Source: Fimbriimonadaceae bacterium (lineage in GTDB: Bacteria > Armatimonadota > UBA10988). Taken from it: a DNA stretch of 34,423 nt. Under the pieces are notes generated by a model. That model had not been told where the DNA came from, did no database searches, and saw only the letters and a program-made list of their open reading frames with translations. This document shows positions 15,894-33,111 of the stretch, in pieces. Both the position numbers and the translations under genes were made by a program. Within the stretch, counting starts at the first letter, position 1. The number at the start of each line of letters is the position of its first letter. The DNA lies in assembly GCA_020850355.1 (NCBI GenBank), contig JADZEX010000065.1, positions 1 through 34,423 on the forward strand. Reading direction: 5' to 3'.

Positions 15894-16272
15894 CTCACCC
15901 TCCAACGCTGGCATCGGAGCAACGCTTGCCAACCGGCCGCTCACGGAAACTTGGCCGCGGGGCCGGTCGATCCTGCCAACTTCATGCCGCGTGACGCGGG
16001 CTGTTGAGGCGCTGCATCGCTCGCGTGGTACCGCAAGCGCCCGAGGATCGATCGCCGCGTTCCCACGACCGTGGCAGCGGACGCTGCCGCCGCCGCGCCG
16101 CAGCGAGTTCGGAGACGACCAGAGGTCGGCCGCGCGACTACTCTCAGGCGGCGGTCCTCTTCCGGGCCTTGAAGCCCTCGAAGGTGCACCGCAAGAAGCG
16201 CCAGCATCCGTCGCTGGGCGACGTCCCGCCCTGCGTTCGAGACCCTCTGGCTACCGCTCACGCGGCCATCAG
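15894..16272. other. Intergenic gap upstream of glycosyltransferase gene
   Basis: About 380 nt separate the preferred glycosyltransferase start from the next candidate ORF. I see no convincing promoter, RNA gene or conserved ORF. A plus-strand frame near 16116-16165 reads GRPRDYSQAAVLF, faintly like the N-terminus of IS5-type transposases, but it is too short to call. Any promoter for the glycosyltransferase gene would lie here. Confidence 0.4.
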
Positions 16273-16635: not shown

Positions 16636-17436
16636 TCAGCCAACGCTCTCGGCGACGACGCAGCGGCTGAGCTGCGCGCTTTTGATCAACCCCTCGAAGT
16701 AACCAGCCAGTCTCTCTGCCAGCGGGGCGTGGCGCACGAGCACGCCGGCCTCGATGTTGCGCTCCTGGCCCGCGGCCGTGAAGTTGGCCGAGGTGACCAA
16801 CGCCACCCGCCGGTCCACGACAATGCACTTCGCGTGCAGGCTCGCGCGCTCGCTACCCGTGCTGAGCGAGCGTGGGTCAAACCACACTTCCGGCAGCTCC
16901 GGCCAGGGCCAGTGGTGCCGGCGGAACTCGGCCGCGAAGTGTTGCAGCGCCTGCTCTGGATCAGTTGCCGGCCGGTGAGCCATGGCATTCAGGCAGAACA
17001 CCACGCGCAGGCCAGGCACCGCCCGCATCCGTTCGACCAGCGGTGCAAACATCGGCGCGGCGTTGTAGAACGCATAGCCCACAACGAGGACCTCTGTCTG
17101 GGCCGCCTCGAACAACGACCGCATCTGCGCCGGCGTGTCGGCCGTTGGCACTCCCGGCACTTCTGGACCAGACAAGACCAGCTCCACCAGCCGTCCGGGA
17201 TCAGCGCCCGAGACGCGCTCGGCCAGCACCGCGTCCACCAGCACGGCCATCTGCCCGGCCGCATAGCCTTCTCGCTGCAACGTCGACAGCAGTGCTGCGA
17301 GCCGGCCTCCACTACCAGGAAACTGGCGCTCCAACACGGCGGTCGACCAGCCAACGGCCAGCCGACCGCGTCCCAGCGAGTCGGCCAGCTCGCGAAGTTC
17401 AGGGGTCGAGAGACGGTGCAGGGCTTCCCAGTTCAT
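16636..17436 (-). CDS. drmC: DISARM phospholipase D-like protein DrmC
   Basis: The 266-residue protein carries a single phospholipase D catalytic motif: LHAKCIVVDRRVALVTSANF at 200-219, with H201, K203 and D208 in HxKx4D spacing, followed by the typical ERNIEAGVLV. Residues 114-150 (TEVLVVGYAFYN, LRVVFCLN) are the usual core strands of a PLD half-domain. PLD enzymes of this size act as dimers that form one active site, so a nuclease or phosphodiesterase role is expected. Its ATG overlaps the drmB stop by 4 nt (ATGA), which indicates translational coupling. In characterised DISARM systems DrmC was found dispensable for defence. The assignment rests on the PLD motif plus its position after drmA and drmB. 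Confidence 0.88.
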   Translation of the reverse strand: MNWEALHRLSTPELRELADSLGRGRLAVGWSTAVLERQFPGSGGRLAALLSTLQREGYAAGQMAVLVDAVLAERVSGADPGRLVELVLSGPEVPGVPTADTPAQMRSLFEAAQTEVLVVGYAFYNAAPMFAPLVERMRAVPGLRVVFCLNAMAHRPATDPEQALQHFAAEFRRHHWPWPELPEVWFDPRSLSTGSERASLHAKCIVVDRRVALVTSANFTAAGQERNIEAGVLVRHAPLAERLAGYFEGLIKSAQLSRCVVAESVG

Positions 17437-19253
17437 GGCAGGTCGAACAGCGCCGTGGCCGGAGGTTGACCCATCGTGGGGACCACCAACGACCGGTCAA
17501 GGTAGTCGTTGCTCTGCTCGCAGCTCGTCTCAGCGATCAGCAAGCACCCGTGGCAGGCAGAGCCATGCAGAAGCTGGTGCGCCTGGTCGCCGGGCGCGTG
17601 ACCGGCGCACACAGGATCGTTCGAGCACAGGGAGCCCAACTCCAACGCCCGCCGCAGGTGGGCCTCGATCCGCCGGCCGGCGTCCACCAAGCCGCCGAGC
17701 GTACCCTCCGAATCCGATGAGCCGGTCAGAATCAGGATGCCGTACTTGCCTGGCTCCGCGTAGACACGCTCGGTCAGAGACGAGCATGGATAGCCGCAAT
17801 CGAGCGCGATGGCGGTCATCAGGAGGTGCGACAGCGAGTGCATCAGGTAGTACTTGGCACCTGGGAACGCTCGATGCTGGCTCTGATGCTCGCGGCGCCA
17901 CAAGTCGTGTCCCTGTCTGTGTTGCCGCTCGCGGGCTTGGACTTCTGGGCGCGACGCCCACTCCTCAACGGCCGCCGCACGGAACAGCAGAAAGATGCCT
18001 TCCCCACGGTTTTCGGATGCCGGCACCCAGCGCTCGTGGCGCGAGAGCGGCGCGCGCTCCACCTGCGGGTCGAGTTCGCCGCTGGTGTCCGGGCCAGCAG
18101 CCTCGAACCGGGTGAACCCCACCAGCGCAGTCACCTGGCGAAGTCGGTGGACGAGCACGACCCTCTCAACTGGGGCCATCCAGCTCGGCCAGTCTGGGTT
18201 GCTCGGCAGGGCCCGGGCGTCGAACTCGTCCTTCGGCGGCGCCATCGCGGCGGATGTCAGTGGGGCCGCCGCCAAGGCGTCGAACTCGGCCGCTTTGACC
18301 GATCCCGACGCGACCACTGTGTCGTCAGCGCCTGCTCGCACTGCGCGGACGGCCGCCAGCACCTCCTCGTTGTCTAGATCGCCTAGCTCCTGATCAAGCA
18401 GCGGAATGGCGCTCCGCAGCGTCGCCAGCGTGCCGAGGTCATCCACCTGCTCGAAGTAGGTCGACCAGAGCCGTTTGACCACATCGGCGCCACGGTCCTC
18501 GGTCTCCGGAATCGACAGAACCGACATGACCTGCGCAAACCAGGCGTTGCTGGCCGTGCGGATCAACAGGCGGCTCGGCTCGTTGCAGCCGTTTCGCTCG
18601 TCAGGCCCGAGCCACGGCTGTTCACCGCGGCAGTACCCGAGGGCGCCAGCGCGACCAAGCGTCGCATCGGTCATCTGGCGCGCGGCTCCACAGTCGCACA
18701 CAGCCCAGATGTCCCTCAGGTCGCCGCTGGTGCCGCGTTCCTCCAACCAGAGCTGGCGCACGCAGTCCGGGTTGGGCCTACCGTGCACAAAGGCCGGCCA
18801 GTCGAGGTCGGCGAGGTGTCCCTTGCGGCAAGCCCGGACAAACCGTACAGCGACCACCCGGGAGCTCTTCCGGGTGACTGGATGCCGGTACTTCATCTGC
18901 TGGTGCTTGATGCTGTCGAGATGCACCAGGGGCCTTCGCAGCCATTCGTCGCGGGTGTGCTCAGGGCAGTTCGCGACGAACCAGCAGGGGAACCGCCAGG
19001 CCTTCACACCCGGCCGGTCCGTGGCATGTGGATCGTCACAGGCCGGAGGTGGCGGGCGCAACGCCAGGTCGCCGACCCCCAGGAGCGCTCGCAGCTTGGC
19101 CTGGAGGCGTGGCTCCTCAATCCTCGGCCACGTCCCTCGGCCGTAGTACCAGGTCTCGAGCCCCCCGACGAGTACCGCGCCGTCGGGCAGGTCCACCATC
19201 GCCCCTGGACCGAACGGCCCCAGCAGTTGTCCGGCCCTGAGTTGGTCGTGCAT
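17433..19253 (-). CDS. drmB: DISARM protein DrmB (DUF1998)
   Basis: The 606-residue protein has the DUF1998 region at about 465-580: KYYLMHSLSHLLMTAIALDC, then PGKYGILILTGSSDSEGTLG, then a Cys-rich end (C543, C549, C567-x2-C570, C578). Further Cys residues at C90, C96, C142, C186 and C188 suggest additional zinc binding. The N-terminus (LRAGQLLGPFGPGAMVDLPD) is typical of DrmB proteins, which partner the helicase DrmA; the DrmA-DrmB complex loads on DNA with a 5' end in characterised systems. Its ATG lies 11 nt after the drmA stop, with a GGGGG tract about 9 nt upstream, and its stop overlaps drmC. The family assignment is strong because sequence and context agree. Confidence 0.92.
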   Translation of the reverse strand: MHDQLRAGQLLGPFGPGAMVDLPDGAVLVGGLETWYYGRGTWPRIEEPRLQAKLRALLGVGDLALRPPPPACDDPHATDRPGVKAWRFPCWFVANCPEHTRDEWLRRPLVHLDSIKHQQMKYRHPVTRKSSRVVAVRFVRACRKGHLADLDWPAFVHGRPNPDCVRQLWLEERGTSGDLRDIWAVCDCGAARQMTDATLGRAGALGYCRGEQPWLGPDERNGCNEPSRLLIRTASNAWFAQVMSVLSIPETEDRGADVVKRLWSTYFEQVDDLGTLATLRSAIPLLDQELGDLDNEEVLAAVRAVRAGADDTVVASGSVKAAEFDALAAAPLTSAAMAPPKDEFDARALPSNPDWPSWMAPVERVVLVHRLRQVTALVGFTRFEAAGPDTSGELDPQVERAPLSRHERWVPASENRGEGIFLLFRAAAVEEWASRPEVQARERQHRQGHDLWRREHQSQHRAFPGAKYYLMHSLSHLLMTAIALDCGYPCSSLTERVYAEPGKYGILILTGSSDSEGTLGGLVDAGRRIEAHLRRALELGSLCSNDPVCAGHAPGDQAHQLLHGSACHGCLLIAETSCEQSNDYLDRSLVVPTMGQPPATALFDLP

Positions 19254-22757: not shown

Positions 22758-22862
22758 ACTTGCGCTATTGCGCGCCATGCCAGATCCGCTCCCAGAGCAG
22801 CTTGGCGCCATCATCTCGGACCCAACTTGCGCATCAACTTGCGCATCACTTGCGCGATCGCA
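22758..22862. repeat. acttgcgc direct repeats upstream of drmA
   Basis: The octamer acttgcgc recurs at 22825, 22837 and 22848 with 12- and 11-nt spacing (acttgcgcatc units), and once more at 22758. The last unit runs into the palindrome gcgcgatcgc. These lie about 45-150 nt upstream of the drmA ATG, in the only real gap of the operon after the broken AlbA_2 gene, whose stop at 22846 falls inside the array. Near one-turn spacing suggests binding sites for a regulator, which is inference. Confidence 0.55.
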
Positions 22863-23216
22863 GACCGTCCTCGGCCGGCTCGTCTGGCTCGACCCCCTCC
22901 GCGGGCCCCGGATACCAACGGGCAGCGCTGGTCCGGCCCACCGAATGGATCCGGGCAGAGGCCCGTAGTTCCGCAAGCAGTTTCTGAAGCTGGGCCAGGC
23001 TCAATGCCGGCAGCACCTGCGGGAGATCCCGCAAGGGACTGCCCTCGTCGGCACCGCGTTGCTCACGCCCAGCACCAGGTGGCCCCCACCCACGTTGGCC
23101 AGCGCGACGCAGTAGCGCCGCAGTTCGCGCGAGTCGAACTGGGCCTTGGCCTCCTTGAACTCCAGATGCTCGCCTTCGCGCGGCTCGGCCAGCCACGCGT
23201 GGAGCTGGGCCAACAT
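22846..23216 (-). pseudogene. Broken AlbA_2 (Schlafen-type) DNA-binding domain gene
   Basis: An ATG at 23216 with GAGGTGA about 5 nt upstream (a GTG at 23225 also fits) opens a typical AlbA_2 N-terminus: EHLEFKEAKAQFD, then RRYCVALANVGGGHLVLGVS. The frame stops after about 70 residues, at 23001. A second frame, entered around 23035-23060 and ending at 22846, encodes LRDLPQVLPALSLAQLQKLL AELR..GRTSAARWYPG, which resembles the winged-helix end common in AlbA_2 proteins. Full-length members are usually several hundred residues, so the middle appears deleted and the two ends are out of frame. In Schlafen-type proteins the AlbA_2 domain is a nucleic-acid-binding or nuclease module. It lies 27 nt after the YwgA-like gene and was probably once a full accessory gene of this cassette. 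The product is likely non-functional. Confidence 0.7.
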
Positions 23217-23243
23217 CACACTCACCTCGCCACCGCCCGTGCC

Positions 23244-23807
23244 TTACGCCAGCAGGCCGGCCTGGCTCATCTGGTCGTAGGTGCGATCCACGTCGGCAGC
23301 GGCGAACCTGCCAGGCTTGACCTCCTGGAGGCGCTGCGCCACGGCCGCCTTGTCCGGTGTCGCGCCCTTGGCCTTCTCCCAGCGGTAGAGGTAGTCCAAC
23401 GTGGCCAACAGCTCCAGCCGGACAGGGCTTAGCGGCACCAGCGCTTGCACGACGCCGCGCACGATGTCTCGGTTGGCATCGAGGTGTGCACGATGCTGGT
23501 CGAGCAGCTCGTTGAGTTTCGCCCCCGGCGCGTAATCCGAGTAGCGGTCAGCACCCGACCGATCGGCGATGACGCCATCGGTCAGTAAGTACTTCACGTC
23601 GCGCGTCAGTTCATCGCAGTACGGCCCGTAGTGGTAGAGCTCGAACCGGTAGCCCATCGGGACCCCGGCGCGGCGTGCGAAGTACACCAGTTTCTGAATG
23701 GCCGTGCGGCCAACCCACCCGCGTTGCTGATCGGCGACGAGGCGTGCCTCTCCGATGACCATCGCCACCAGGGCCTGATCACGATCCCCCGTTAGTAGCA
23801 GCGCCAT
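23244..23807 (-). CDS. YwgA-like protein
   Basis: The 187-residue protein resembles the B. subtilis YwgA family, distantly like Panacea/SocA antitoxins: AIQKLVYFARRAGVPMGYRF at 36-55, then ELYHYGPYCDELTRDVKYLL at 56-75. The rest is helical, with no membrane segment. The ATG at 23807 has GGAGG about 7 nt upstream and lies inside the 3' end of the HD gene, overlapping it by 29 nt, so the two are translationally coupled. YwgA-like genes are often found next to YwfO-like HD phosphohydrolases, as here, which suggests a protein partnership or regulation of the HD enzyme. The biochemical role is unknown. A toxin-antitoxin-like relation with the HD enzyme is possible but not shown. Confidence 0.72.
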   Translation of the reverse strand: MALLLTGDRDQALVAMVIGEARLVADQQRGWVGRTAIQKLVYFARRAGVPMGYRFELYHYGPYCDELTRDVKYLLTDGVIADRSGADRYSDYAPGAKLNELLDQHRAHLDANRDIVRGVVQALVPLSPVRLELLATLDYLYRWEKAKGATPDKAAVAQRLQEVKPGRFAAADVDRTYDQMSQAGLLA

Positions 23808-25161
23808 CGATTCCCTCCGCCGGCGGCTCCGTCTCTCGCGCCATCCTCGCCATACTCCGCCGCGTGACCATGTCCTCCGGGTCCACCGCAGCGAAAACGC
23901 GGCTGCACTGGAACTGGCGGGGCAAGGTCCGCAAGACCTGGCTGCGGTCGGCCAGCAACCACTGCTCGTCGCCGTCCAGGACCCACAACTCCACCCCGGG
24001 CTCGCGATCCGGACCGTCCAGACGCGCCAGTTTGTGGATCTTGCCCTTGGCCTGATCCAGTATGATCTCGTGCTGGGTAAAATGTTCCTGCAAGGCTTTC
24101 GCCACCGTCCCGGCCCGTGCCGCGGCATTGGCGTCGTCGCTCAGCGGTGTCTCGTAGACGACGCGATGGTGGTTGCGGTCCCAGATGCGACGGGCCAGCG
24201 CGCGACGGTCGCCGTCGCCCGCTACGGCATCTTGCCGGATCTGCTCGAGCATGCCGACATCGGTGGCCGCCAGAATGGCCGCATCGCCCCGCGGCGCTGC
24301 GTCTCCCAGTGCCTTGAAGTAAGCCACCAGGTAGTGGTCGTAGATCCGCCGCAGCCGGTGGTAGTACACCTGCGCGTTCATCTGGTAGCGGGCGAGGATG
24401 AGGGCCTCAAAGGTGTGGATGCCGCCCTTGTGGAGCGCCACCTGAAGGCCGCCGCCCTCCACTTGGCGAAGCTCCAGGCACTCGATCATCCGGCGGTAGT
24501 CAAACCGACCGTAGTCGACACCACAATGGAGCGAATCACGCAGCAGGTAATCCGTACGATCGGCGTCCATCTCGCCGGACACGATGTCGTGCAGCAAGGC
24601 TAGTTGCGGCGCGATGGCCTCGCCGCCTTCAACGATGGCGGCCACCCGTCCGGCTGTGCGCTCGCCGTAGTACCTATCGATCTCACTGCCCAGCAGATCG
24701 GCTTCGCGGATCACGCGGAGACTCAGTTGCTCGTGGCCACCTTCGTGCAGCACCTCCTCAGCGGCGTGTGAGAATGGCCCATGCCCCACGTCATGCAGCA
24801 GAGCGGCCAGTCGCAAGTCCTGCCGGGCCTTCGCCAGCGTATCGTACGCGTAGCCCGGCACCTGCTTGAAGACCTCGTCCATCAGCCCGCCGTGCTTCGA
24901 CGCAAGCGAATCAAAGGCCCGGGTGGCCACCTCCATGACGCCCAGTGAGTGCTCGAATCGCGTGTGGCTGGCCCCAGGGTAGACCAGCTCCGTGAGCGCC
25001 AACTGCCTGATGTAGCGCAGCCGCCGGAACAGTGGGTGGTCGATGATCCGGCGCTCGTACTCCGAAAACCGGATGAAGCCGTGCACCGGGCAGCGCACCC
25101 GCTTCAGCGGCTCGTTCGCATCGCCGGCCAGGAACTCCGGGCCACGGTAATCATTCGGCAC
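23779..25161 (-). CDS. SAMHD1/YwfO-like HD-domain phosphohydrolase
   Basis: The 460-residue HD protein has the full set of metal ligands of the SAMHD1/dGTPase branch: RFEHSLGV with H71, LLHDVGHGPFSH with H123 and D124, and SGEMDADRTDYLLRDSLHCG with D201. The N-terminal VHGFIRFSEYERRIIDHPLF RRLRYIRQL is also typical. Such enzymes cleave dNTPs to the nucleoside and triphosphate; SAMHD1 and some bacterial dGTPases restrict viruses by depleting dNTPs. The start is a GTG at 25161 with AGGGAGG about 8 nt upstream, 29 nt after the drmMI stop. It is not a standard DISARM component, so its placement inside the operon suggests an accessory defence or housekeeping role. Substrate specificity cannot be read from the sequence. 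Confidence 0.85.
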   Translation of the reverse strand: MPNDYRGPEFLAGDANEPLKRVRCPVHGFIRFSEYERRIIDHPLFRRLRYIRQLALTELVYPGASHTRFEHSLGVMEVATRAFDSLASKHGGLMDEVFKQVPGYAYDTLAKARQDLRLAALLHDVGHGPFSHAAEEVLHEGGHEQLSLRVIREADLLGSEIDRYYGERTAGRVAAIVEGGEAIAPQLALLHDIVSGEMDADRTDYLLRDSLHCGVDYGRFDYRRMIECLELRQVEGGGLQVALHKGGIHTFEALILARYQMNAQVYYHRLRRIYDHYLVAYFKALGDAAPRGDAAILAATDVGMLEQIRQDAVAGDGDRRALARRIWDRNHHRVVYETPLSDDANAAARAGTVAKALQEHFTQHEIILDQAKGKIHKLARLDGPDREPGVELWVLDGDEQWLLADRSQVLRTLPRQFQCSRVFAAVDPEDMVTRRSMARMARETEPPAEGIDGAATNGGS

Positions 25162-25190: not shown

Positions 25191-28100
25191 TCACTCCGCC
25201 AACAACCCCCCATCCTCCTGCCGCTTCCCGCGCCCACCACGCTTCGTCGTTGAACCCCTGTTACCTCCCGCCGCCAGCCCGGCCAGCCGCTCCTCCTCCG
25301 CCCGCTCCGCGTTCAGCGCCAGCAGCCGCGCCAGCACCTCGTCGCGCACCGCGTCGGGCCAGCGGTAGCGCCAGGGCTTGCGGCGCCGGCGGGGTGAACG
25401 GGGAGCGGCGAACGGCGAACCGTCATCGCCCCCACCGTTCGCCGTTCCCTGTTCTCCGTTCGCCTCGTCCTCCTCGTCCTCATACTCCAGCAGGAACTCA
25501 CACGCCGTCGGCAGGTCGCTCCAGCCGTAGGCGTCCAGCACCGCGCGGTCCATCTCCGCGTGCAGCTCGCGCAGCCGCAGGAGGTCCGGATTCCGCTCGT
25601 CGGGGTCGTGGAAGCGGTTGTAGGTCTTCGTCAGGCCCTCGTTGTGGCAGACCATCAGGTCGGCGCGGAAGTCGTAGTAGGTCTGGCCGATGGACTCCAG
25701 GGCGGGGTTGGATTCCCAGTTGCGGGGGAAGGGGAAGGTCTCGAAGCAGTCAGAGGGGGTGTAGCGGAACCGCTCCTCGAGTGACGATCCAAAGAAGCGA
25801 GCCCAAGCCTCATGCACGCGGCACTGGAGCAAAGCCAACCCACCGCAGGGCGGCACGACGAAGCAGTTGAGTGTGTGGCCGAAGACACCACCAGTCGGGA
25901 GGATGGCAAAGGCGACGTGCGAGGAGACCTGCGAGTTCGCAAGCACCCGAGCCATGCCTTCGATGGCACCATAGAGCTCTTTGGCAGTATGGCCGAACTG
26001 CCAGAACTGCTCGACGATGGCGCCGCTGCTCGATGCCGCTGAGGAACTCGCCCTTGCGGGCAGGACTCTACTCTCCACGATCTGGAACAACTCAGGCCAC
26101 TTCCGGGCCTCTGGCTCTGTCATCTCGCCGAAGTTGATGATGTACCTGTGATGCGAGTGGGTTGGGCTGTCGTTGACTTCCTCGCCGCCAAGGTACGGGA
26201 AGATCCGCTCCGCGTTCCGCGGGTCGCGCGACACCAAGTCGGCCATCACAGCCAGCGGGCTGGCGACTTGTTTCGTGTCCGTGTCATCGAAAGTGAAGCC
26301 CATGCCACGGACCACACTCCCCTGGAAGCTCTTTGCGGTGTTCGCGCGTAGCCTTGCTGGGTCGTCGTGCCCGCCGGCATGGAAGAGGTAAGCGGTGATG
26401 ATCGGCACCGAACGGCCATTGAGCTGGAACGGGCCGGTCACCTTCCTCTTAGCCAGGTGGACAACACTCACCACGACGGCGGCTTGGCCGGGCCAACGAT
26501 AGCGCTTCTGCGCGGCGTAGATGGTGCCGCCATGCCCGCAGGTCCAGCGTAACCCCGATGAGCGGGTGTCGCCCTGTCCGATGGTGTTTGTCGCGATCAG
26601 CCCGAAACAGCCGTTCGGCCGCAGTAGTTCGAACGCGCGCCGAAAGAAGAAAGCGACCAAGTCGCACTTCCCGCCGCTCTCGGGGTTCATCGCTCGCAGG
26701 TAGTCAGTGAACCCAGGACCATTGCTTGTCGTGACCGTGACGTGCCCGGCGAATGGTGGGTTCCCGACGATGCCATCGAACCCCGCCCGCTCGCCCCCAA
26801 ACACCTCCGGGAACTCAATCTCCCAGTGGAACGGGGACACGGGTGAATGGTGAATGGTGAGTGGTGAATGGCCGGAGCCGGCGCGGAGCTCGTCGCGCGC
26901 CGCCGTGGGCAAGTGCCGGACGTCACCCGTCTCCAGCGCCGCCAGCACCGCCTCCAGCAGCGCATCGCGCCGGGCCTGCCGCTCCTTGTCCTTGCTGCCG
27001 CCGAAGAACGCGGCGATCACCAGGTCGCCATACAGCCGCACCACATCGAGCTTGCCGTCGGCCACGGCCAGCCAGCGGCTCTTCTCGGCCGGGCTGAGGT
27101 GGTCGCCGCCGTCGAGCACGCGGCGGCGGCAGAGCACGGCCTGGTCGATGTGCGCTTCGAGGTCCTGCTGCCCGAACACGCGGTCGCCGGTCGGCCGCCA
27201 ATGGAAGCCGAGGATCTGCCGGCGGGTCAGCCCGACCAGCGAGTCGCCGGCCCGCAGCGAGTGGTCGACGAAGGTGAAGGGATGGTCCTTGGCCAGGGTC
27301 GCCAGCCAGAGCGAGAGCTTGGCCAGGTCGACGGCCATCGGGTTCTTGTCCACGCCGTAGAGGCAGCGCTGGGCGATCAGGCGCTTGGCCAGCATCAGCT
27401 CGTCTTCGTCGGGCGGGACCGCCGGCACTTCGCCGTGGTGATGCCAGGCTTCGACCAGCACGTCGGCGAGCTGGCGGCAGGCTTCCACCAGGAACGCCCC
27501 GGATCCCATGGCGGGGTCGCAGACCTTCAGGTCGAGGATCAGCGATTCGGCGAACAGCCAACGGCGAACAGCGAACGGGGTCAGGCGCCAGAGGCGTCCG
27601 GTGGCGTCGTCCGGCGCTTCAAACTGCGTTCCAGGCTCAGGATCTGCCGACCCAGAATGGCCAGTTCCTCCAACAGCGGCTGAGCATGCGGCTCGCTCAC
27701 CAGACCCAGATCGATGCTCAGGAGCAACTGGGTCTCCAACTCCGCCGTGCTGCCGTTCGCAATGCGGATAAACTGGATGAACTCCGCCGGGTAGTGCCTC
27801 GCCCAACCCTCGGCCAGGTTCGAGGGAATGGACACCGCCGCCCGCCGCATCTGCGAGGTCAGCCCGAACCGTTCCTCGCTCGGGAAGCCGCGCGTCAGGT
27901 CGTACACCTCCCGTACCACCCTCCGCCCGCGCTGCCACACGTCCAGGTCGCGATAGGATTCGATGGACATAGTCGCGCTGCTCCTCATTCACCCAAGCCG
28001 GCGAACGGTGACCGGTGAGCGGCGAACCGCCGGTCGCACCAGTCGCTGTTCGCCATTCGCCGTTCGCCCCGTCCCGCCATTCGCCGTTCGCCAGTCGCAG

Positions 28101-29849
28101 GGCATCCTCACCGAGCTGCGCCAGCACCGGCTCCAACGTCTTCCGGACAATCGGCGCGGTGAGCTTGCGCGGGGTGTAGTGCGAGCCGGTGCGGCGGCGC
28201 TCGTCGGTCGGCTGGAGCACCAGGCCGCCAGCCGGCACCGGGGCCGGTGTGGCGTGCCGGGCGATGCGCTTGTCGAGCGCCGCGAGCAGCTCGTCCAGCG
28301 TGCCGGCGTCCTTCAGGCCGCTGTACGTCTTGCCTGTCCAGTCGTGGCCGGTGGCGTCGGCGAGCCACTTGCCGCGGTCCCTGGCTGGGGTGGCGAGCAA
28401 CGCCTCGAGGTTGATCACCACCGGCGCGGCGACCTCGGATTTGTGCTTGCGCTGGCCGACGATGGCGATGGACGTGCCGGCCACCCGTTCGAGCGCGAAG
28501 CCCATGATGGTCTGGTAGACCGAGCCGATCTCCTCGACGTCGAGGGTGCGGTAGGAGAGCCGTTCGCCGTTGAGGATCAGCAGGTTGCGGAGGACGCGCT
28601 CCAGGCAGCCGTCGGCGAGGCGGGGGAGAGGCGACTGGTGGGTGGCGAGTGGCGAATGGTCGGCATCGTCCGCGCCCGTCTCCGTTCGCTGTTCGCCATT
28701 CGCCATGCGCCCCACCAGGAACGGGTACCGCTCGGGGTCGAACAGGTGACCCTCACGCGGCGGCATCGCCAACTCGGGGTGGCGGCAGCCGCCGTGGACC
28801 GCGCCGAACAGGGCCACGAGCTGGGCCCAGCCGCCGTAGCGCTGGTCCATCGTGTCGGGGTAGCGCTCGCGGTCGGCGCGCAGCCGCTCGAACAGGCCGT
28901 GGACCGAGTAGTGGCGCAGGTAGAGCGGCGTGCCCGGCAGCAGGCCGCGGTCTTCGGCGTAGAGCAGGAACACCAGGCGCATCAGCACCGCCAGCAGGCC
29001 GGCGTAGATCGAGTCCGGGTCGTCGCGCAGCGCCTCGGCCAGCAGCTCGCCGTTGGTCGCCGCGTCGGCCGCCTGGAAGCCGCGCAGCAGCTCGTACAGC
29101 GCTTCGAGCACCTGACCCGCCAGGGCCGTGGAGACCTGGCTCTGGTAGTCGCGACTCCTGGCCAGCAACGCCGGCAGCCGCGCCGACCGGGGCCCGGTGA
29201 GCAGGCGCCCGACCGACAGCAGCAGGTCGAGTGCGCCAACCAGCGGCCGGCCGGCGACTTCGGTCAGATGGGTGATCGGCCAGGTCAGGCTGCCCGAACT
29301 CTCGCCGCGCGGCGCGTAGATCAGGCGCAGGTGACGGCCGTTGCAGAGCACGCCGATGGCGACCCCGGTCTCGCGCAACAGCCGCTCGCAGCGCTGGCTG
29401 GCCGACGCCGACCAGGCGGCCTGGTCGCCGGTCGTCGCCGCGTCCAAGCTGGTCGACGGGGCGATCTCCTGGACCAGCACGAGCGGCACCCCTGCCTCTT
29501 CGCTGGTGTCCACAAAGGCCAGGGTCGGCGAGAGGATCTCCTGGAGGTCCGGCAACGGCACGACCAGGCTGTCGGGCACTGGACGCGCTGGTTCGAGGCC
29601 GAGCAGGCACTCCTCTGGCCAGCCCAGGAACTCGCGGACGAAGCGCGTGCAGTCGGCGATGGCCGGGACGGTCTCGGCGCCGGCCTCGACCTCGGCGACG
29701 TGCTCCAGGAAGCGCTGCTGCAACTCGGTGGCGTTGCGGTCCAGGACGACCTGCGCATCGACCAGAGCGGCGGCGGAGACGACCAGCCCGTCGGGCTGGA
29801 GGTACCCGAGCCAGGCCTGGTGGTCGTGCAAGGCGGGATCGTAGGTCAT
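25191..29849 (-). CDS. drmMI: DISARM adenine methyltransferase DrmMI, with inserted elements
   Basis: The 1552-residue frame encodes the large N6-adenine methyltransferase of class 1 DISARM, which modifies host DNA so that it is spared. AdoMet motif I is VCDPAMGSGAFLVEACR at 776-792 and the catalytic motif is GNPPF at 1029-1033. The specificity and C-terminal half include CFETFPFPRNW and YNRFHDP. The N-terminal third (AEDRGLLP, GSHYTPRKLTAP) is standard for the family. The ATG at 29849 lies 4 nt after the drmD stop. Four foreign-looking stretches interrupt it in frame: about 383-407, 586-767 (an entire four-helix-bundle gene element), about 993-1005, and about 1478-1503. Without the large one, LEPVLAQLGEDA would join ESLILDLKVCDPAMGSG, as in normal homologues. 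Whether the enlarged protein is active is unknown. Confidence 0.9.
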   Translation of the reverse strand: MTYDPALHDHQAWLGYLQPDGLVVSAAALVDAQVVLDRNATELQQRFLEHVAEVEAGAETVPAIADCTRFVREFLGWPEECLLGLEPARPVPDSLVVPLPDLQEILSPTLAFVDTSEEAGVPLVLVQEIAPSTSLDAATTGDQAAWSASASQRCERLLRETGVAIGVLCNGRHLRLIYAPRGESSGSLTWPITHLTEVAGRPLVGALDLLLSVGRLLTGPRSARLPALLARSRDYQSQVSTALAGQVLEALYELLRGFQAADAATNGELLAEALRDDPDSIYAGLLAVLMRLVFLLYAEDRGLLPGTPLYLRHYSVHGLFERLRADRERYPDTMDQRYGGWAQLVALFGAVHGGCRHPELAMPPREGHLFDPERYPFLVGRMANGEQRTETGADDADHSPLATHQSPLPRLADGCLERVLRNLLILNGERLSYRTLDVEEIGSVYQTIMGFALERVAGTSIAIVGQRKHKSEVAAPVVINLEALLATPARDRGKWLADATGHDWTGKTYSGLKDAGTLDELLAALDKRIARHATPAPVPAGGLVLQPTDERRRTGSHYTPRKLTAPIVRKTLEPVLAQLGEDALRLANGEWRDGANGEWRTATGATGGSPLTGHRSPAWVNEEQRDYVHRILSRPGRVAARAEGGTGGVRPDARLPERGTVRADLADAAGGGVHSLEPGRGLGEALPGGVHPVYPHCERQHGGVGDPVAPEHRSGSGERAACSAAVGGTGHSGSADPEPGTQFEAPDDATGRLWRLTPFAVRRWLFAESLILDLKVCDPAMGSGAFLVEACRQLADVLVEAWHHHGEVPAVPPDEDELMLAKRLIAQRCLYGVDKNPMAVDLAKLSLWLATLAKDHPFTFVDHSLRAGDSLVGLTRRQILGFHWRPTGDRVFGQQDLEAHIDQAVLCRRRVLDGGDHLSPAEKSRWLAVADGKLDVVRLYGDLVIAAFFGGSKDKERQARRDALLEAVLAALETGDVRHLPTAARDELRAGSGHSPLTIHHSPVSPFHWEIEFPEVFGGERAGFDGIVGNPPFAGHVTVTTSNGPGFTDYLRAMNPESGGKCDLVAFFFRRAFELLRPNGCFGLIATNTIGQGDTRSSGLRWTCGHGGTIYAAQKRYRWPGQAAVVVSVVHLAKRKVTGPFQLNGRSVPIITAYLFHAGGHDDPARLRANTAKSFQGSVVRGMGFTFDDTDTKQVASPLAVMADLVSRDPRNAERIFPYLGGEEVNDSPTHSHHRYIINFGEMTEPEARKWPELFQIVESRVLPARASSSAASSSGAIVEQFWQFGHTAKELYGAIEGMARVLANSQVSSHVAFAILPTGGVFGHTLNCFVVPPCGGLALLQCRVHEAWARFFGSSLEERFRYTPSDCFETFPFPRNWESNPALESIGQTYYDFRADLMVCHNEGLTKTYNRFHDPDERNPDLLRLRELHAEMDRAVLDAYGWSDLPTACEFLLEYEDEEDEANGEQGTANGGGDDGSPFAAPRSPRRRRKPWRYRWPDAVRDEVLARLLALNAERAEEERLAGLAAGGNRGSTTKRGGRGKRQEDGGLLAE
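25395..25465. repeat. gcgaac-type inverted repeat inside drmMI 3' end
   Basis: The left arm gaacggggagcggcgaacgg and its continuation, and the right arm gttcgccgttccctgttctc and its continuation, are imperfect inverted repeats of about 26-28 nt around a 15-nt loop. In the protein it encodes an ANGEQGTANGG...GSPFAAPRSP stretch next to an acidic run. It shares sequence with the flanks of the nested four-helix-bundle element in the same gene. Confidence 0.7.
26840..26875. repeat. gtgaatg-type short direct repeats inside drmMI
   Basis: The plus strand reads ggtgaatgg-tgaatgg-tgagtgg-tgaatgg, encoding HSPLTIHHSP on the minus strand just before HWEIEFPEVF. It resembles one arm of the gcgaatggcgaac hairpins elsewhere in drmMI but has no clear opposite arm. 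Confidence 0.6.
27549..28094 (-). mobile_element. IVS-like element: four-helix-bundle gene flanked by inverted gcgaac repeats
   Basis: An insertion of about 546 nt, a multiple of three, interrupts drmMI between LGEDA and ESLILDLKV. Its 5' flank on the minus strand (about 28094-28005) repeats GGCGAACGGCGAATGGCG twice and folds on itself. Its 3' flank (about 27578-27550) reads CCGTTCGCTGTTCGCCGTTG.., the inverse complement of the 5' flank. Between them lies a complete gene for a 23S-rRNA-IVS-type four-helix-bundle protein. This architecture (terminal inverted repeats around an S23/IVS ORF) is that of intervening sequences known from 23S rRNA genes, here placed in a protein-coding gene. Exact ends and any target duplication are not resolved. 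Confidence 0.7.
27581..27970 (-). CDS. Four-helix-bundle (23S rRNA IVS / S23-type) protein, nested in drmMI
   Basis: The 129-residue protein matches the S23/IVS four-helix-bundle family throughout: YRDLDVWQRG, VVREVYDLTRGFPSEERFGL, TSQMRRAAVSIPSNLAEGWA, FIRIANGSTAELETQLLLS. Members are encoded by intervening sequences in 23S rRNA genes and are related to Avd proteins of diversity-generating retroelements; they form pentameric barrels and are thought to bind nucleic acid. I chose the ATG at 27970 because the family starts there and GAGGAG lies about 10 nt upstream; an in-frame ATG at 27988 would add six residues. It is on the same strand as drmMI but in a different frame, lies wholly inside it, and has its own stop. 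The host frame is open across it. Confidence 0.85.
   Translation of the reverse strand: MSIESYRDLDVWQRGRRVVREVYDLTRGFPSEERFGLTSQMRRAAVSIPSNLAEGWARHYPAEFIQFIRIANGSTAELETQLLLSIDLGLVSEPHAQPLLEELAILGRQILSLERSLKRRTTPPDASGA
28005..28096. repeat. 5' flank of the nested element: gcgaac repeats with internal inverted arms
   Basis: In minus-strand reading, two direct copies of GGCGAACGGCGAATGGCG are followed after a short spacer by GGTTCGCCGCTCACCGGTCA.. in inverse orientation. The region can form a local hairpin or pair with the 3' flank near 27550-27578. It encodes LANGEWRDGANGEWRTATG.. in the drmMI frame. Confidence 0.7.
28625..28712. repeat. gcgaatggcgaac-type inverted repeat inside drmMI 5' third
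   Basis: The left arm ggcgactggtgggtggcgag plus tggcgaatgg and the right arm ccgttcgctgttcgccattc plus gccatgcgcc are imperfect inverted repeats of about 30 nt around a spacer of about 21-23 nt. It encodes ANGEQRTETGADDADHSPLA in an otherwise conserved region. It is the same family as the hairpins at 25395 and 28005. Confidence 0.7.
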
Positions 29850-29853
29850 GGCG

Positions 29854-32800
29854 TTACCCCGTGACCGGCCACAGGTAGGCCAGCCCGACCGGCTCCAAGC
29901 GCGACGAGGTCACCTCGTAGAACTCCCGGATGCGCTCCGGCTCGCGGGCTCGCTGGTCGTCAAACCGACCCAGCCAACGCTCCCAGGCGCGGCGGTTGGC
30001 TTCGAGCTGCCGCTCCTCCTCGGCGGTCAGCGCTCCGGGCAGGAGGCCTTGCGGTGAGCCGCCGCGCAGTTTGGCCTGCTCATCGAGGACGCGCCGCTTC
30101 TGCTGGTCCAGCATGTCAGCCATCGCCTCAGCCTCGATCCGTCCGCGATCCGCGAGGCGCCGTGTGGCGTCCACCTGCGCCGCGGCGCCGCGGTCGGACA
30201 GGTGCGGCAGGAGTTCGCCGATGTCCTGGGCCACCGACGCCTCGAAGCGCGCGGCCACCGTCGGCGCCACCCGGCCCGGCCCGGGCTTCAGGGCCGCCTC
30301 CAGCAGGTCCAGGGTGCGGCCTTCGGCCTCCCGCGCATAGGGCGCCAGGGTACCGTGGCGCACCTCCGGGGCCGTCCAGCGGGCGGTCACGGTCAGCACC
30401 TCCTCGTGCAGCCGCACCGCACCGCGACCGTACAGGGCCAGGCGGCCGATCAGCACCACGCGCGGGATGCTGTCCTCGCTCTGAGCCAGGCAGGCGCGCG
30501 ACAGGTCGTGGTAAACGAAGCCCTGGGCCGTGAACCGTGAGAGCAGCCGCTGCACGACGCGGTGGGACAAGTGGAGCTGCACGACGTCGTCGTCGAGTCC
30601 CGGCGGCGGTTGGAAGACCACCGGCCGAAGGGGCTTCTGCTGGCGCCACTGGTAGGTGCGATCGCCGTCCTCGGGCAACTCCCGGAGCGTGTCGAGCGTG
30701 CCCGCCCAGCCCGGATCGGAGCCGTGACGGGTGTCCAGATTCGGGAACACGAAGCGCTGCGGCTCGCCGCTGGGCGTGTCTGCTGGCGCGAGGGGCTTGA
30801 CTCGCAGCATCTCCAGCGAACAGGACAACGCGTCACGCAACGCGCCCTCGTCCAAGCCGATCCGGCGCCGGGAGCTGTCCAGGTAGGTGCGCAGCGTGTC
30901 GATCTCCCGCTGCAGATCGGCTCGGCGCAAGCGAGTGGCCTCGAGCTCCTCGTCGACCACCGCCTGCCGCTCCGGGTCGGGACCGATGGCTTGGATGTCG
31001 GCCGTGATCCGCGCCACCTCGGCATGGCGGATCCCGCCCTGCTGGAGCATGTCGGCCAGGCGCTTCTCCAAGACCTGTGAGAGGCTGCCGAGTTCGGCGC
31101 GGATGGTCTCCGTCTTCTGCACCAGCGTCCTCAGAACGCGGTCCTCGGGCCGTTGGGTGTAGACGAAGTAGTGGCAGAACACCTTGTCGCGAGGCTGGAG
31201 TTTGCGGTCGATGCGGCCATTCCGCTGTTCGAGGCGGGCCGGGTTCCAGGGCACATCGAAGTGGAAGAGGTGGCTGCAGTGCGCCTGCAGGTTCAGACCT
31301 TCGCGCGCGGCGTCGGTGGCCACGAGAATGCGCAGCGGGTGCTCGGCGGGGGCCAGGTTGAAGGCGCGTTGGATGGCCCGGCGGCGGTCCATGGACGTGG
31401 CGCCGCTGTAGAAATCGAGGCGCTGCTCGGCCAGGTCGGTGCCTCTGACCGCCTCGCGCAACCTGCCCACCAGCCACCGCCGGGTGTCTTCGTACTCGGT
31501 GAAGATCAGCAGCCGCCGGTCCGACCATCGGGCGTCGCGCTGACCGCTGGGCTCGTCGGGCAGACGGGCACCGGCACACAGATGCTCGCGGACCCAGGCG
31601 ATCAGGTGCCGCACGCGCGCGTCAGGCAGGCCGCGAGTTGATTCCGCGATCCGGACCATCTCGTCCAGCAACTGCCGCTCGCGGGGAACGTCGGCGGAGG
31701 TCGGCGTGCCCGCTGTGGCCAGGGTGGCACGCTCGAAGGCGACCTCCTCCAAGCGACCGCGGTCAGCATCGTCGAGGGCCGCGCAGTCGTCGTCCGGATC
31801 GCCGGCACCCACCAAGGCGCCCTGGTCGCAGCGCCCCGCAGTCGTCGCCTCGCCAGCCCAGAGTCGCTCCATCGTCCGACGATGCACCGCCAGCGTCCGC
31901 GCAAAGGCCTCGACCGACGAGAGCAGCCGCTGTTGCAGGCCCGAGAGGAGCAGCGCAGCTTGGGCCTGCTGGCGTTTGGACGCTGCGGCCACCCGGCGCT
32001 GGCGCACGTCGCGGTACGCGTTGAGCAACTCCGATAGCCGCAACTCGGGAGCGTCCGGCGGCAGACCGGCGAGGTCGACCTGCCGCACGGCGCGCTCGGG
32101 GAAGCCGCCCTGCAAAGCCCGAATGTCGTCTTTCAGCCGGCGCACCATAACCTGGTCGCGGTTCTTGGGCAGTACCTGCACCCCCCGCACGAACCTGTCC
32201 GGGTCAAGCAGTTCCAGCAGTGCGCTGAAGCTATTGGAGTGGCCATTGTGCGGGGTGGCTGAGAGGAACAGGCGGTGCTCGAAATGCGGCGCCAGATCGC
32301 GGATGGCCCGGGTGATTCGACTGTCGATGGCGTAGCGGGAGCTGCTGGCCGGGGCAGCGTGGTGGGCCTCGTCCAGGATCAGCAGGCTGCCCGTGCGCAG
32401 CTCGCCGAGCCAGGCGCGGAGCGGGCCGGCGTAGCTCTCATCGATCAGCAGCTTGTGCGAGACGATGAAGCGGGGGTAAGTCAGCCAGGGATTGGCCCCG
32501 AAACCATGCTCACGCCGGATCCGGTCGACGTACTCGCGGTCCAGGACCTCGAAGGTCAGCCCAAAGCGCGACTCCATCTCCTCCTGCCACTGCGGGATCA
32601 TCGACGGCGGGCAGGCGACCACGATCTCGCGCACGCGGCGCCGGAGCAGCAGCTCGGAGGCGATCAGGCCAGCCTCGATGGTCTTGCCGAGGCCCACATC
32701 GTCGGCGATGAACAAGCTGACCCGCGGCAGGACGAGGGCCTTGCGGAGCGGCTCAAGCTGGTAGGCGTCGAGCTTGATACCTGCGCGGAATGGCGACTGG

Positions 32801-33111
32801 AACAGACGCGGCTCGGTGGCGGTGACGCAGTTCCAGCGCAGCGTGTGAAGGTAGGCACTGAACCATGACTTCGCGTCGAAGCCCCGCGCGCCGATGCTCT
32901 GCCAGGCCTCCTCATCGAGGATCTGAGCCTCTGGTTCCAGTTCCCAGATGACCTCAAGCGGTTGGCCTTGGGCATCGTCATCGAGGCAGGACAGTCGGAC
33001 CAGCGCGCCGTGGCCCGTGGTGCTGTCCACGGCTTCGGTGAGGTAGGTGCGCATCCGCAGGCGCACGACTTGCCCGGGCGCTGGGATCGGAGCTGGGGTG
33101 GGAGTGCTCAC
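29854..33111 (-). CDS. drmD: DISARM SNF2-like helicase DrmD
   Basis: The 1085-residue SNF2/Rad54-type helicase has Walker A IADDVGLGKTIEAGL at 135-149, the DEAH box ILDEAHHAAP at 245-254, motif III LSATPHNGHSNSF at 283-295, motif V VATDAAREGLNLQ at 597-609, and motif VI PARLEQRNGRIDR at 624-636. A coiled-coil-prone segment (about 690-780) and a C-terminal DrmD-type region follow. DrmD marks class 1 DISARM, where it is encoded next to drmMI, as here. It is thought to remodel or translocate on DNA during restriction. The start is a GTG at 33111 with GAGAGGG about 7 nt upstream; this GTG overlaps the stop of a small upstream frame (GTGA). It is the first clear gene of the operon, so the promoter should lie upstream of 33111. 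Confidence 0.92.
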   Translation of the reverse strand: MSTPTPAPIPAPGQVVRLRMRTYLTEAVDSTTGHGALVRLSCLDDDAQGQPLEVIWELEPEAQILDEEAWQSIGARGFDAKSWFSAYLHTLRWNCVTATEPRLFQSPFRAGIKLDAYQLEPLRKALVLPRVSLFIADDVGLGKTIEAGLIASELLLRRRVREIVVACPPSMIPQWQEEMESRFGLTFEVLDREYVDRIRREHGFGANPWLTYPRFIVSHKLLIDESYAGPLRAWLGELRTGSLLILDEAHHAAPASSSRYAIDSRITRAIRDLAPHFEHRLFLSATPHNGHSNSFSALLELLDPDRFVRGVQVLPKNRDQVMVRRLKDDIRALQGGFPERAVRQVDLAGLPPDAPELRLSELLNAYRDVRQRRVAAASKRQQAQAALLLSGLQQRLLSSVEAFARTLAVHRRTMERLWAGEATTAGRCDQGALVGAGDPDDDCAALDDADRGRLEEVAFERATLATAGTPTSADVPRERQLLDEMVRIAESTRGLPDARVRHLIAWVREHLCAGARLPDEPSGQRDARWSDRRLLIFTEYEDTRRWLVGRLREAVRGTDLAEQRLDFYSGATSMDRRRAIQRAFNLAPAEHPLRILVATDAAREGLNLQAHCSHLFHFDVPWNPARLEQRNGRIDRKLQPRDKVFCHYFVYTQRPEDRVLRTLVQKTETIRAELGSLSQVLEKRLADMLQQGGIRHAEVARITADIQAIGPDPERQAVVDEELEATRLRRADLQREIDTLRTYLDSSRRRIGLDEGALRDALSCSLEMLRVKPLAPADTPSGEPQRFVFPNLDTRHGSDPGWAGTLDTLRELPEDGDRTYQWRQQKPLRPVVFQPPPGLDDDVVQLHLSHRVVQRLLSRFTAQGFVYHDLSRACLAQSEDSIPRVVLIGRLALYGRGAVRLHEEVLTVTARWTAPEVRHGTLAPYAREAEGRTLDLLEAALKPGPGRVAPTVAARFEASVAQDIGELLPHLSDRGAAAQVDATRRLADRGRIEAEAMADMLDQQKRRVLDEQAKLRGGSPQGLLPGALTAEEERQLEANRRAWERWLGRFDDQRAREPERIREFYEVTSSRLEPVGLAYLWPVTG

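What the first reader, a model, noticed from the sequence alone, without database searches (positions are those of the whole stretch)
23244..25161. HD phosphohydrolase and YwgA-like genes overlap by 29 nt
The pair has translational coupling and matches the known neighbourhood of ywfO and ywgA in Bacillus. Here it has been moved into a defence operon. The YwgA-like protein resembles Panacea-type antitoxin folds, so it may restrain the HD enzyme until infection.
Basis: inference. Interest (0 to 1): 0.5.

Follow-up and report, generated by a model that had tools for sequence, protein, structure and literature searches.

The report
dNTPase–regulator pair inside DISARM
A bacterial antiviral gene cluster (DISARM) carries, at a spot where other such clusters carry different add-on genes, a two-gene unit made of an enzyme related to the nucleotide-destroying human protein SAMHD1 and a small protein related to the part of a known antitoxin that holds its toxin off, which suggests a plug-in weapon with a safety catch.

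Summary
In detail: on the minus strand an HD gene (23779-25161) and a YwgA-like gene (23244-23807) overlap by 29 nt. They lie between drmMI and drmA of a complete class 1 DISARM operon. The HD protein is of the SAMHD1/E. faecalis dNTPase type with its active-site motifs intact. The small protein is a stand-alone relative of the C-terminal domain of DarG, the part that blocks the toxin DarT (fold Z 17.1; profile E 5e-20); the Panacea resemblance is much weaker. Of 20 decidable stand-alone homologues in the phylum, window included, 19 adjoin an HD gene: an old conserved unit, often in ordinary neighbourhoods. New here: the drmMI-drmA junction is a variable cargo slot, filled in 14 of 22 loci examined, elsewhere with PARIS-like, RmrA-like or PIN/DUF4209 genes; HD-YwgA sits there in two deeply separated DrmA lineages (one clade rejected, p 4.6e-71). 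Best reading: a plug-in dNTP-depleting effector with a DarG-like protein regulator. Restraint of HD by YwgA is inferred; against an obligate antitoxin speak HD genes without YwgA in 3 of 4 Bacillota records and a YwgA that is not acidic.

The parts
23779..25161 (-). HD-domain protein, 460 aa, SAMHD1/EF1143-type dNTP triphosphohydrolase by homology; kept: H71, H123-D124 and D199 (metal-site positions), H132/E135 (HxxE, the place of the HE dyad), H143-E144 (residue roles recalled from SAMHD1 and Dgt)
   Evidence: Pfam HD 1.9e-9 and HD_assoc_2 9.6e-12; PDB 2hek 2.3e-46, E. faecalis HD protein 2o6i 8.8e-33, SAMHD1 from 6.3e-24; these residues invariant in 7 aligned homologues; model pLDDT 85.8, Foldseek 2hek 3.3e-20, 3irh 3.7e-18, SAMHD1 7.2e-18
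23244..23807 (-). YwgA-like protein, 187 aa: stand-alone homologue of the DarG C-terminal domain; overlaps HD by 29 nt
   Evidence: NCBIfam DarG 1.2e-11, residues 20-177 to profile 176-335, 44.5 bits, below the whole-protein cut-off 250 as expected for one domain; model pLDDT 91.7; 7yk3 DarG chain TM 0.71, Z 17.1; hhalign to DarG CTDs E 5.1e-20
25191..29849 (-). drmMI, MmeI/Eco57I-like adenine methylase of DISARM class 1
   Evidence: PADLOC DrmMI E 0; Pfam Eco57I 3.7e-20, MmeI_Mtase 2.3e-17
29854..33111 (-). drmD, SNF2-type helicase of DISARM class 1
   Evidence: PADLOC DrmD E 0, 1018.8 bits
19265..22714 (-). drmA helicase
   Evidence: NF038325 1070 bits, cut-off 950; PADLOC 5.6e-263
17433..19253 (-). 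drmB (MZB domain)
   Evidence: NF038324 557.7 bits, cut-off 240; Pfam MZB 4.5e-7
16636..17436 (-). drmC, phospholipase-D-like
   Evidence: NF038319 171 bits, cut-off 133
23001..23225 (-). 74-aa ORF: start of a decayed Schlafen AlbA_2-type gene between ywgA and drmA, read as a relic of another cargo gene
   Evidence: Pfam SLFN_AlbA_2 9.3e-8, 33.1 bits, cut-off 25.3, residues 17-56 to profile 1-41 of 118; the frame then stops

Best explanation
HD-YwgA is an accessory effector module plugged into the drmMI-drmA junction of a class 1 DISARM operon. The HD protein is a SAMHD1-type enzyme that hydrolyses dNTPs and so starves phage replication. YwgA, a stand-alone relative of the DarG domain that occupies DarT's active site, binds the HD enzyme and keeps it idle in healthy cells; infection, or failure or overload of DISARM, relieves the block. 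Shown here: the operon anatomy, the family and intact active-site motifs of HD, the DarG-domain identity of YwgA, the conservation of the pair, the variable slot and the presence of the pair in two separate DISARM lineages. Inferred: dNTPase activity, physical HD-YwgA binding, direction of control (inhibition), the trigger, and that the module acts in defence.
For: Complete class 1 DISARM around the pair. HD belongs to a dNTPase fold with invariant active-site motifs. YwgA has the fold and sequence of the DarG C-terminal domain; that domain blocks DarT by mimicking ssDNA (passage in PMC11481870). 19 of 20 decidable stand-alone YwgA loci, window included, adjoin HD. Same arrangement in G113 (L032, complete operon) and G212 (L031, contig cut upstream of ywgA). 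The slot is occupied in 14 of 22 loci; others hold genes matching PARIS-type AriA/PtuA and, weakly, AriB models, RmrA, PDC-S39/DUF4209 and PIN, and an annotated MqsA-family antitoxin plus SecB next to an IS element; L032 also has an AbiGi-antitoxin-like ORF. The three HD-YwgA DrmAs are not one clade (AU p 4.6e-71; fewest changes of the label 3), while one clade of their YwgAs is not rejected (p 0.148): cargo and backbone have different histories. Clover shows an HD dNTPase defence effector restrained by its partner gene (PMC12265719).
Against: Of 12 named loci only L048 (the same sequence as L031) shows DISARM genes in the DNA held; neighbours are of housekeeping type in 5 of 7 named loci scanned. 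HD lacks a detectable YwgA within 3 kb in 3 of 4 Bacillota records examined, so HD is probably not obligately toxic there. The window YwgA is not acidic (net +1, pI 7.8), and the 11 aligned sequences range from -10 to +13, so whole-protein ssDNA mimicry is not supported. 0 of 18 plasmid DISARM regions examined carry the pair in the slot. No interface, toxicity or enzyme activity was tested.
Confidence: 0.4

Rival explanations
1. YwgA is not an inhibitor but an activator, adaptor or sensor: its winged-helix-like N-terminal part senses DNA or docks HD onto the DISARM machinery, switching HD on.
For: VIA also aligns residues of about 1-120 with winged-helix DNA binders and ORC/Cdc6 domains at Z about 8-10. 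3 of 4 Bacillota records have HD without a detected YwgA, easier to explain for a co-activator than for an antitoxin. Pairs also sit beside type I R-M genes.
Against: The match to the DarG inhibitor domain over nearly the whole protein (Z 17.1) stands far above the winged-helix rows, which the tool flags as a common arrangement. Gene order does not decide.
Confidence: 0.25
2. The pair is a housekeeping nucleotide-pool unit (as in Bacillaceae) that was captured by the DISARM operon and has no role in defence.
For: Housekeeping-type neighbours in 5 of 7 named loci scanned; Priestia keeps the pair in an ordinary gene order.
Against: Same junction in two deeply separate DISARM lineages; the same slot in other loci holds genes that match defence and toxin-antitoxin models; 2 of 11 stand-alone loci in the phylum adjoin type I R-M genes, one lies beside a DrmD-like helicase (L042), another pair beside DrmA (L094); 2 of 7 named loci scanned have an SNF2 helicase (L051) or a DNA methylase (L050) next to them.
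Confidence: 0.2
3. HD acts on another substrate (nucleic acid or a signalling nucleotide) rather than dNTPs.
For: HD enzymes are chemically diverse (start of the abstract of PMC8177086 in the listing); residues that bind activator nucleotides in SAMHD1 look only partly kept (by eye; residue roles recalled).
Against: Best homologues by sequence and fold are the SAMHD1/E. faecalis dNTPase group, including structures with bound dNTPs; active-site motifs intact.
Confidence: 0.1

Closest known systems
DISARM class 1 (drmD, drmMI, drmA, drmB, drmC)
   Same: All five core genes on one strand in the order drmD-drmMI-drmA-drmB-drmC, as in plasmid loci such as L102-L105.
   Different: Two extra genes, HD and ywgA, and an AlbA_2 relic between drmMI and drmA. 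PMC9142583 says the operon holds 'additional auxiliary genes' but the passages I saw name no HD gene; PMC12458937 has no hit for HD domain, YwgA or DarG.
Clover (CloA dNTPase + CloB nucleotidyltransferase)
   Same: HD-type dNTPase encoded next to a partner gene that, in Clover, restrains it.
   Different: Partner here is a DarG-domain protein, not a nucleotidyltransferase; HD here is closest to SAMHD1/EF1143. CloA itself was not compared.
DarTG
   Same: YwgA shares fold and sequence with the DarT-binding C-terminal domain of DarG.
   Different: No macrodomain in the protein; an HD enzyme, not DarT, as neighbour.
YwfO-YwgA pair of Bacillaceae
   Same: HD gene followed by a YwgA-like gene in Priestia.
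   Different: There an ordinary neighbourhood; here inside DISARM and overlapping.
Panacea (SocA/DUF4065) antitoxins
   Same: Weak local similarity around a QK-[LI]-x-Y-F ... Y-G-P stretch.
   Different: About 48 columns only; the window protein itself has no Pfam Panacea match.

Membership tests
DISARM class 1 | drmD + drmMI + drmA + drmB + drmC in one operon | tested here: met
   all five by PADLOC; drmA, drmB, drmC over NCBIfam cut-offs (drmD and drmMI were not scanned in NCBIfam)
DISARM class 1 | methylation-sensitive phage restriction | not testable with these tools
   needs phage challenge
SAMHD1/EF1143-type dNTPase | HD metal site and HE (HxxE) dyad positions | tested here: met
   H71, H123, D124, D199, H132, E135, also H143-E144, invariant in 7 aligned homologues; roles recalled from SAMHD1 and Dgt
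SAMHD1/EF1143-type dNTPase | overall fold | tested here: met
   Foldseek 3irh 3.7e-18, SAMHD1 7.2e-18
SAMHD1/EF1143-type dNTPase | dNTP triphosphohydrolase activity | not testable with these tools
   needs enzyme assay
DarG C-terminal-domain superfamily | sequence and fold homology over the domain | tested here: met
   hhalign E 5.1e-20 over 161 columns; Z 17.1 over 172 of 187
DarTG toxin-antitoxin system | DarG macrodomain and DarT neighbour | tested here: not met
   187-aa protein aligns only to DarG profile 176-335 of 338; neighbours are HD and DrmA
Panacea antitoxins | Pfam SocA_Panacea domain | tested here: inconclusive
   no match in the window protein; 2 of 11 relatives, best E 0.0065; hhalign prob 19.7
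Clover | CloB nucleotidyltransferase next to the dNTPase | tested here: not met
   adjacent genes are DrmMI and YwgA
Clover | HD enzyme of the CloA family | tested here: inconclusive
   CloA not compared; antiphage dGTPase model NF041026 24.4 bits against cut-off 400, PADLOC dGTPase 40.1 bits; best kin SAMHD1/EF1143
Type II toxin-antitoxin pair | HD toxic alone, neutralised by YwgA binding | not testable with these tools
   needs co-expression

The most novel reading that the evidence does not exclude
The drmMI-drmA junction of class 1 DISARM is a general socket for interchangeable back-up killers (PARIS-like, RmrA-like, PIN/DUF4209, HD-YwgA), each with its own safety catch, that fire when DISARM is blocked or overrun; HD-YwgA would be a dNTP-depleting toxin-antitoxin pair neutralised by a DarG-type protein domain, and that domain a transferable neutraliser serving at least two unrelated enzymes.
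Probability: 0.3. Interest if true: 0.78.

Novelty: new variant of a known kind. Interest (0 to 1): 0.57.

Why it matters
It links three separate stories: SAMHD1-like dNTP depletion, the DarG toxin-blocking domain and DISARM. If HD is held by YwgA, the DarG domain is a portable inhibitor used against unrelated enzymes, and the ywfO-ywgA-type pair of Bacillaceae gets a testable function. The variable slot gives a simple rule for finding new defence modules: look between drmMI and drmA.

Tried and rejected
Panacea as the main identity of YwgA: rejected in favour of the DarG C-terminal domain; no Panacea structure appeared among the rows shown by the fold searches, which proves nothing. Global acidity as a sign of DNA mimicry: not seen. 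A phage or plasmid home for this YwgA: no plasmid match, no viral-contig relative among 21 pattern matches. HD relatives: 11 phage records not followed; of 39 plasmid records 4 were opened. More DISARM loci with the pair in G113's order (113 genomes) and G000's class (5 genomes): none new. Six DrmA homologues below the family cut-off (L095-L100) have no HD or YwgA hit. ORF 22846-23196 as a gene: no family match; perhaps part of the AlbA_2 relic. Defence-island look at 63 neighbours of 11 stand-alone pairs: the lists are capped (25 of 122 PADLOC and 25 of 46 Pfam families shown) and mix restriction and helicase families with housekeeping ones; only some hits were traced to loci, L035 and L045 beside type I R-M, while the L045 563-aa and L044 960-aa neighbours gave no restriction match. 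No control set was run, so no enrichment is claimed.

Rows dropped or set aside: the DrmA tree (21 rows, quick method, composition warning for the window, L031 and L108) leaves out L095-L100 and L133-L138; in the label count the contig-cut, no-drmMI and L094 rows were left out. In the YwgA tree (30 rows, some long branches) L048 was left out as the duplicate of L031, and upstream leaders were left on some rows. Of 45 YwgA places, 30 were fetched: 8 DarG-type ORFs and 2 contig-cut loci (L002, L006) were set aside before the count 19 of 20; the one without HD is L016. Of the 12 named loci, 9 adjoin HD (HD split over two frames in L049 and L054), 2 are contig-cut (L048, L050), 1 shows none (L057). 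The 22 slot loci are the window, L032, L089, L091, L092 and 17 plasmid regions; L109 has no drmMI upstream in the record; L031, L090, L093 and L094 are contig-cut. The plasmid regions are 18 of the top 19 hits of 53.

Full report
Observation. HD occupies 23779-25161 on the minus strand (460 aa). The YwgA-like protein starts at the ATG at 23807 and ends at 23244 (187 aa), so the genes overlap by 29 nt. The start is backed by conserved residues directly after this Met in relatives, though the frame is open further upstream. Nine comparable loci have junctions from -4 to +53 nt, -4 in four of them, so tight coupling is the rule and 29 nt is at the long end.

Operon. PADLOC and NCBIfam models identify drmD 29854-33111, drmMI 25191-29849, drmA 19265-22714, drmB 17433-19253 and drmC 16636-17436. 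This is a complete class 1 DISARM with HD and ywgA between drmMI and drmA. The window is one whole contig of its genome.

HD protein. It matches Pfam HD and HD_assoc_2, PDB 2hek (2.3e-46), the E. faecalis HD protein (2o6i 8.8e-33, further entries 3irh and 4lrl with bound dNTPs) and SAMHD1 (best 6.3e-24). H71, H123, D124, D199, H132, E135, H143 and E144 are invariant in seven homologues (window, three Planctomycetota, Sumerlaeota, Chloroflexota, Acidobacteriota by record title). By motif spacing H132/E135 takes the place of the HE dyad that PMC12265719 gives for CloA as H126/E129; the other roles are recalled from SAMHD1. A model (pLDDT 85.8) finds the same structures by fold. It scores 24.4 bits on the antiphage dGTPase model, cut-off 400, and 40.1 bits on PADLOC's dGTPase, so its nearest known kin are SAMHD1 and EF1143 rather than the known antiphage dGTPases. 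Activity on dNTPs is inferred.

YwgA-like protein. In one search no Pfam family matches the window protein up to E 1, but NCBIfam and PADLOC DarG models match residues 20-177 and 29-182 at the DarG C-terminal domain. An AlphaFold2 model from 11 sequences (pLDDT 91.7, pTM 0.88) has only two PDB matches below E 0.001, both DarG chains of the DarTG complex 7yk3; VIA gives Z 17.1 over 172 of 187 residues against 10.0 for the next entry. Profile comparison with seven DarG C-terminal domains from the same phylum gives prob 99.3, E 5.1e-20 over 161 columns. With twelve Panacea proteins it gives prob 19.7, E 0.0012 over 48 columns, and DarG with Panacea prob 68.7, E 4.6e-5. So YwgA is a stand-alone relative of the DarG C-terminal domain; a remote tie to Panacea is possible. 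According to the passage in PMC11481870, this DarG domain occludes DarT's active site by mimicking ssDNA. The window protein is not acidic overall, so mimicry cannot be carried over directly.

The pair. In 291 genomes of the window's phylum 40 have a YwgA match, at 45 places. Of the 30 loci fetched, 8 are DarG-type ORFs (6 of 6 scanned match DarG, and 3 of 3 scanned neighbours match DarT), 2 are cut by contig ends, and of the remaining 20 stand-alone genes, window included, 19 adjoin an HD gene. In this phylum the domain thus has two kinds of partner: DarT when fused to a macrodomain, HD when alone. In 12 named loci, mostly Planctomycetota, 9 adjoin HD, 2 are cut and 1 shows none. Neighbour genes were scanned in 7 of them: 5 look like housekeeping (such as tRNA synthetase, AcrB, PrpF), L051 has an SNF2 helicase and L050 a DNA methylase. 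Two of 11 stand-alone loci in the phylum adjoin type I restriction genes (L035: HsdR 3.9e-27 and HsdS 3.1e-37; L045: HsdR 6.2e-241).

The slot. Two further genomes of the phylum have the pair in DISARM: G113 (L032, drmD-drmMI-HD-ywgA-drmA-drmB-drmC complete) and G212 (L031, ywgA-drmA-drmB, contig cut upstream of ywgA); in G131 (L094) an HD-YwgA pair lies divergently beside drmA. Of 8 genomes with a DrmA over the cut-off, 3 have YwgA in this place, 3 do not and 2 are contig-cut. Across 22 loci with both drmMI and drmA, the junction holds cargo in 14 (gap over 800 bp with an ORF), is under 100 bp in 7, and is 840 bp without a clear gene in 1 (the window's own junction). Cargo elsewhere: in L102 an ATPase (best PtuA 3.2e-31, AriA 2.2e-26) and a DUF4435 protein (AriB 4.5e-6; Pfam DUF4435 just under its cut-off), with the same layout by annotation in L134, L135 and L138; in L106 an HTH-M78 protein matching RmrA 2.3e-18 beside PLD and DUF2188 genes, with XRE-type genes by annotation in L107 and L110; PIN_4 plus DUF4209/PDC-S39 in L089; an annotated MqsA-family antitoxin, SecB and a transposase in L101; ORFs without a family match in L092 and L105 and L137 (Pfam only). 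Related loci are counted singly, so the 14 are not independent. L032 has in addition an AbiGi-antitoxin-like ORF on the other strand. In the window itself the start of a decayed AlbA_2 gene remains between ywgA and drmA, which looks like an older cargo. 0 of 18 plasmid regions have HD-YwgA there.

Movement of the cargo. In a DrmA tree the window groups with Thiodictyon (SH-aLRT 99), while G212 and G113 fall in a separate deep clade (100); holding the three together is rejected (p-AU 4.6e-71). In the YwgA tree the window is sister to G212 (92/93, not starred) and one clade of the three is not rejected (p 0.148). So the module moved between, or was recruited separately by, two DISARM lineages at the same junction.

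Mechanism. The closest functional precedent is Clover, in which CloA, an HD dNTPase, is toxic without its partner CloB, whose product p3diT suppresses it until dTTP rises (PMC12265719: abstract and outline, passages, sections 5 and 26 seen). By analogy HD depletes dNTPs and YwgA is the brake, acting as a protein and not through a nucleotide. Direction of control, trigger and even a role in defence are inferred. HD without YwgA in some Bacillota suggests that the enzyme needs no such brake there.

Literature. Searches for YwgA (8 papers), DISARM with DrmA and DrmB, drmMI (20 of 24 listed), DISARM with 'embedded' and 'accessory genes' (15 of 38 listed), 'genetically embedded' (8 of 10 listed) and dNTPase/SAMHD1/EF1143 terms (12 of 15 listed) listed no paper whose title or abstract start describes HD-YwgA or a drmMI-drmA cargo slot; 'HD domain' with DISARM and drmA gave none. 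PMC12458937 was searched for HD domain, YwgA, DarG and related terms and its sections 5 and 26 read. PMC9142583 was seen in passages only; it mentions 'additional auxiliary genes' in DISARM operons. PMC10440598 and PMC8832971 were searched for terms only. The library holds open-licence papers only. That defence genes can be embedded in other defence operons is known in general (recalled, not read here).

Verdict. A real, conserved unit in an unexpected place; a new variant of known kinds, with a sharp testable mechanism.

Noticed in passing
window 23001-23225 (-): Start of a Schlafen AlbA_2-type gene (Pfam 9.3e-8) that breaks off: relic of another gene in the same slot.
   Followed up: partly
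window 25439-25466, 27549-27588, 28043-28108, 28686-28713: Short TCGCxGTTCGCC-type repeats in both orientations lie inside the drmMI open frame.
   Followed up: partly
L032:7495-8187 (-): AbiGi-antitoxin-like ORF (Pfam 3.2e-6) between drmMI and HD in the G113 DISARM operon.
   Followed up: partly
L035 and L045: HD-YwgA pairs directly beside type I restriction genes (HsdS/HsdR).
   Followed up: partly
L094 (G131:C80): A more distant HD-YwgA pair lies divergently next to a DISARM drmA.
   Followed up: no
L111:22924-24359: Macrodomain protein with a YwgA/DarG-type domain and a DUF4433 gene (DarTG-like), about 9 kb from a plasmid DISARM in Paracoccus.
   Followed up: no
window 10212-15944 (-): 1910-aa protein with several glycosyltransferase, methyltransferase and TPR domains beside the DISARM operon.
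   Followed up: no
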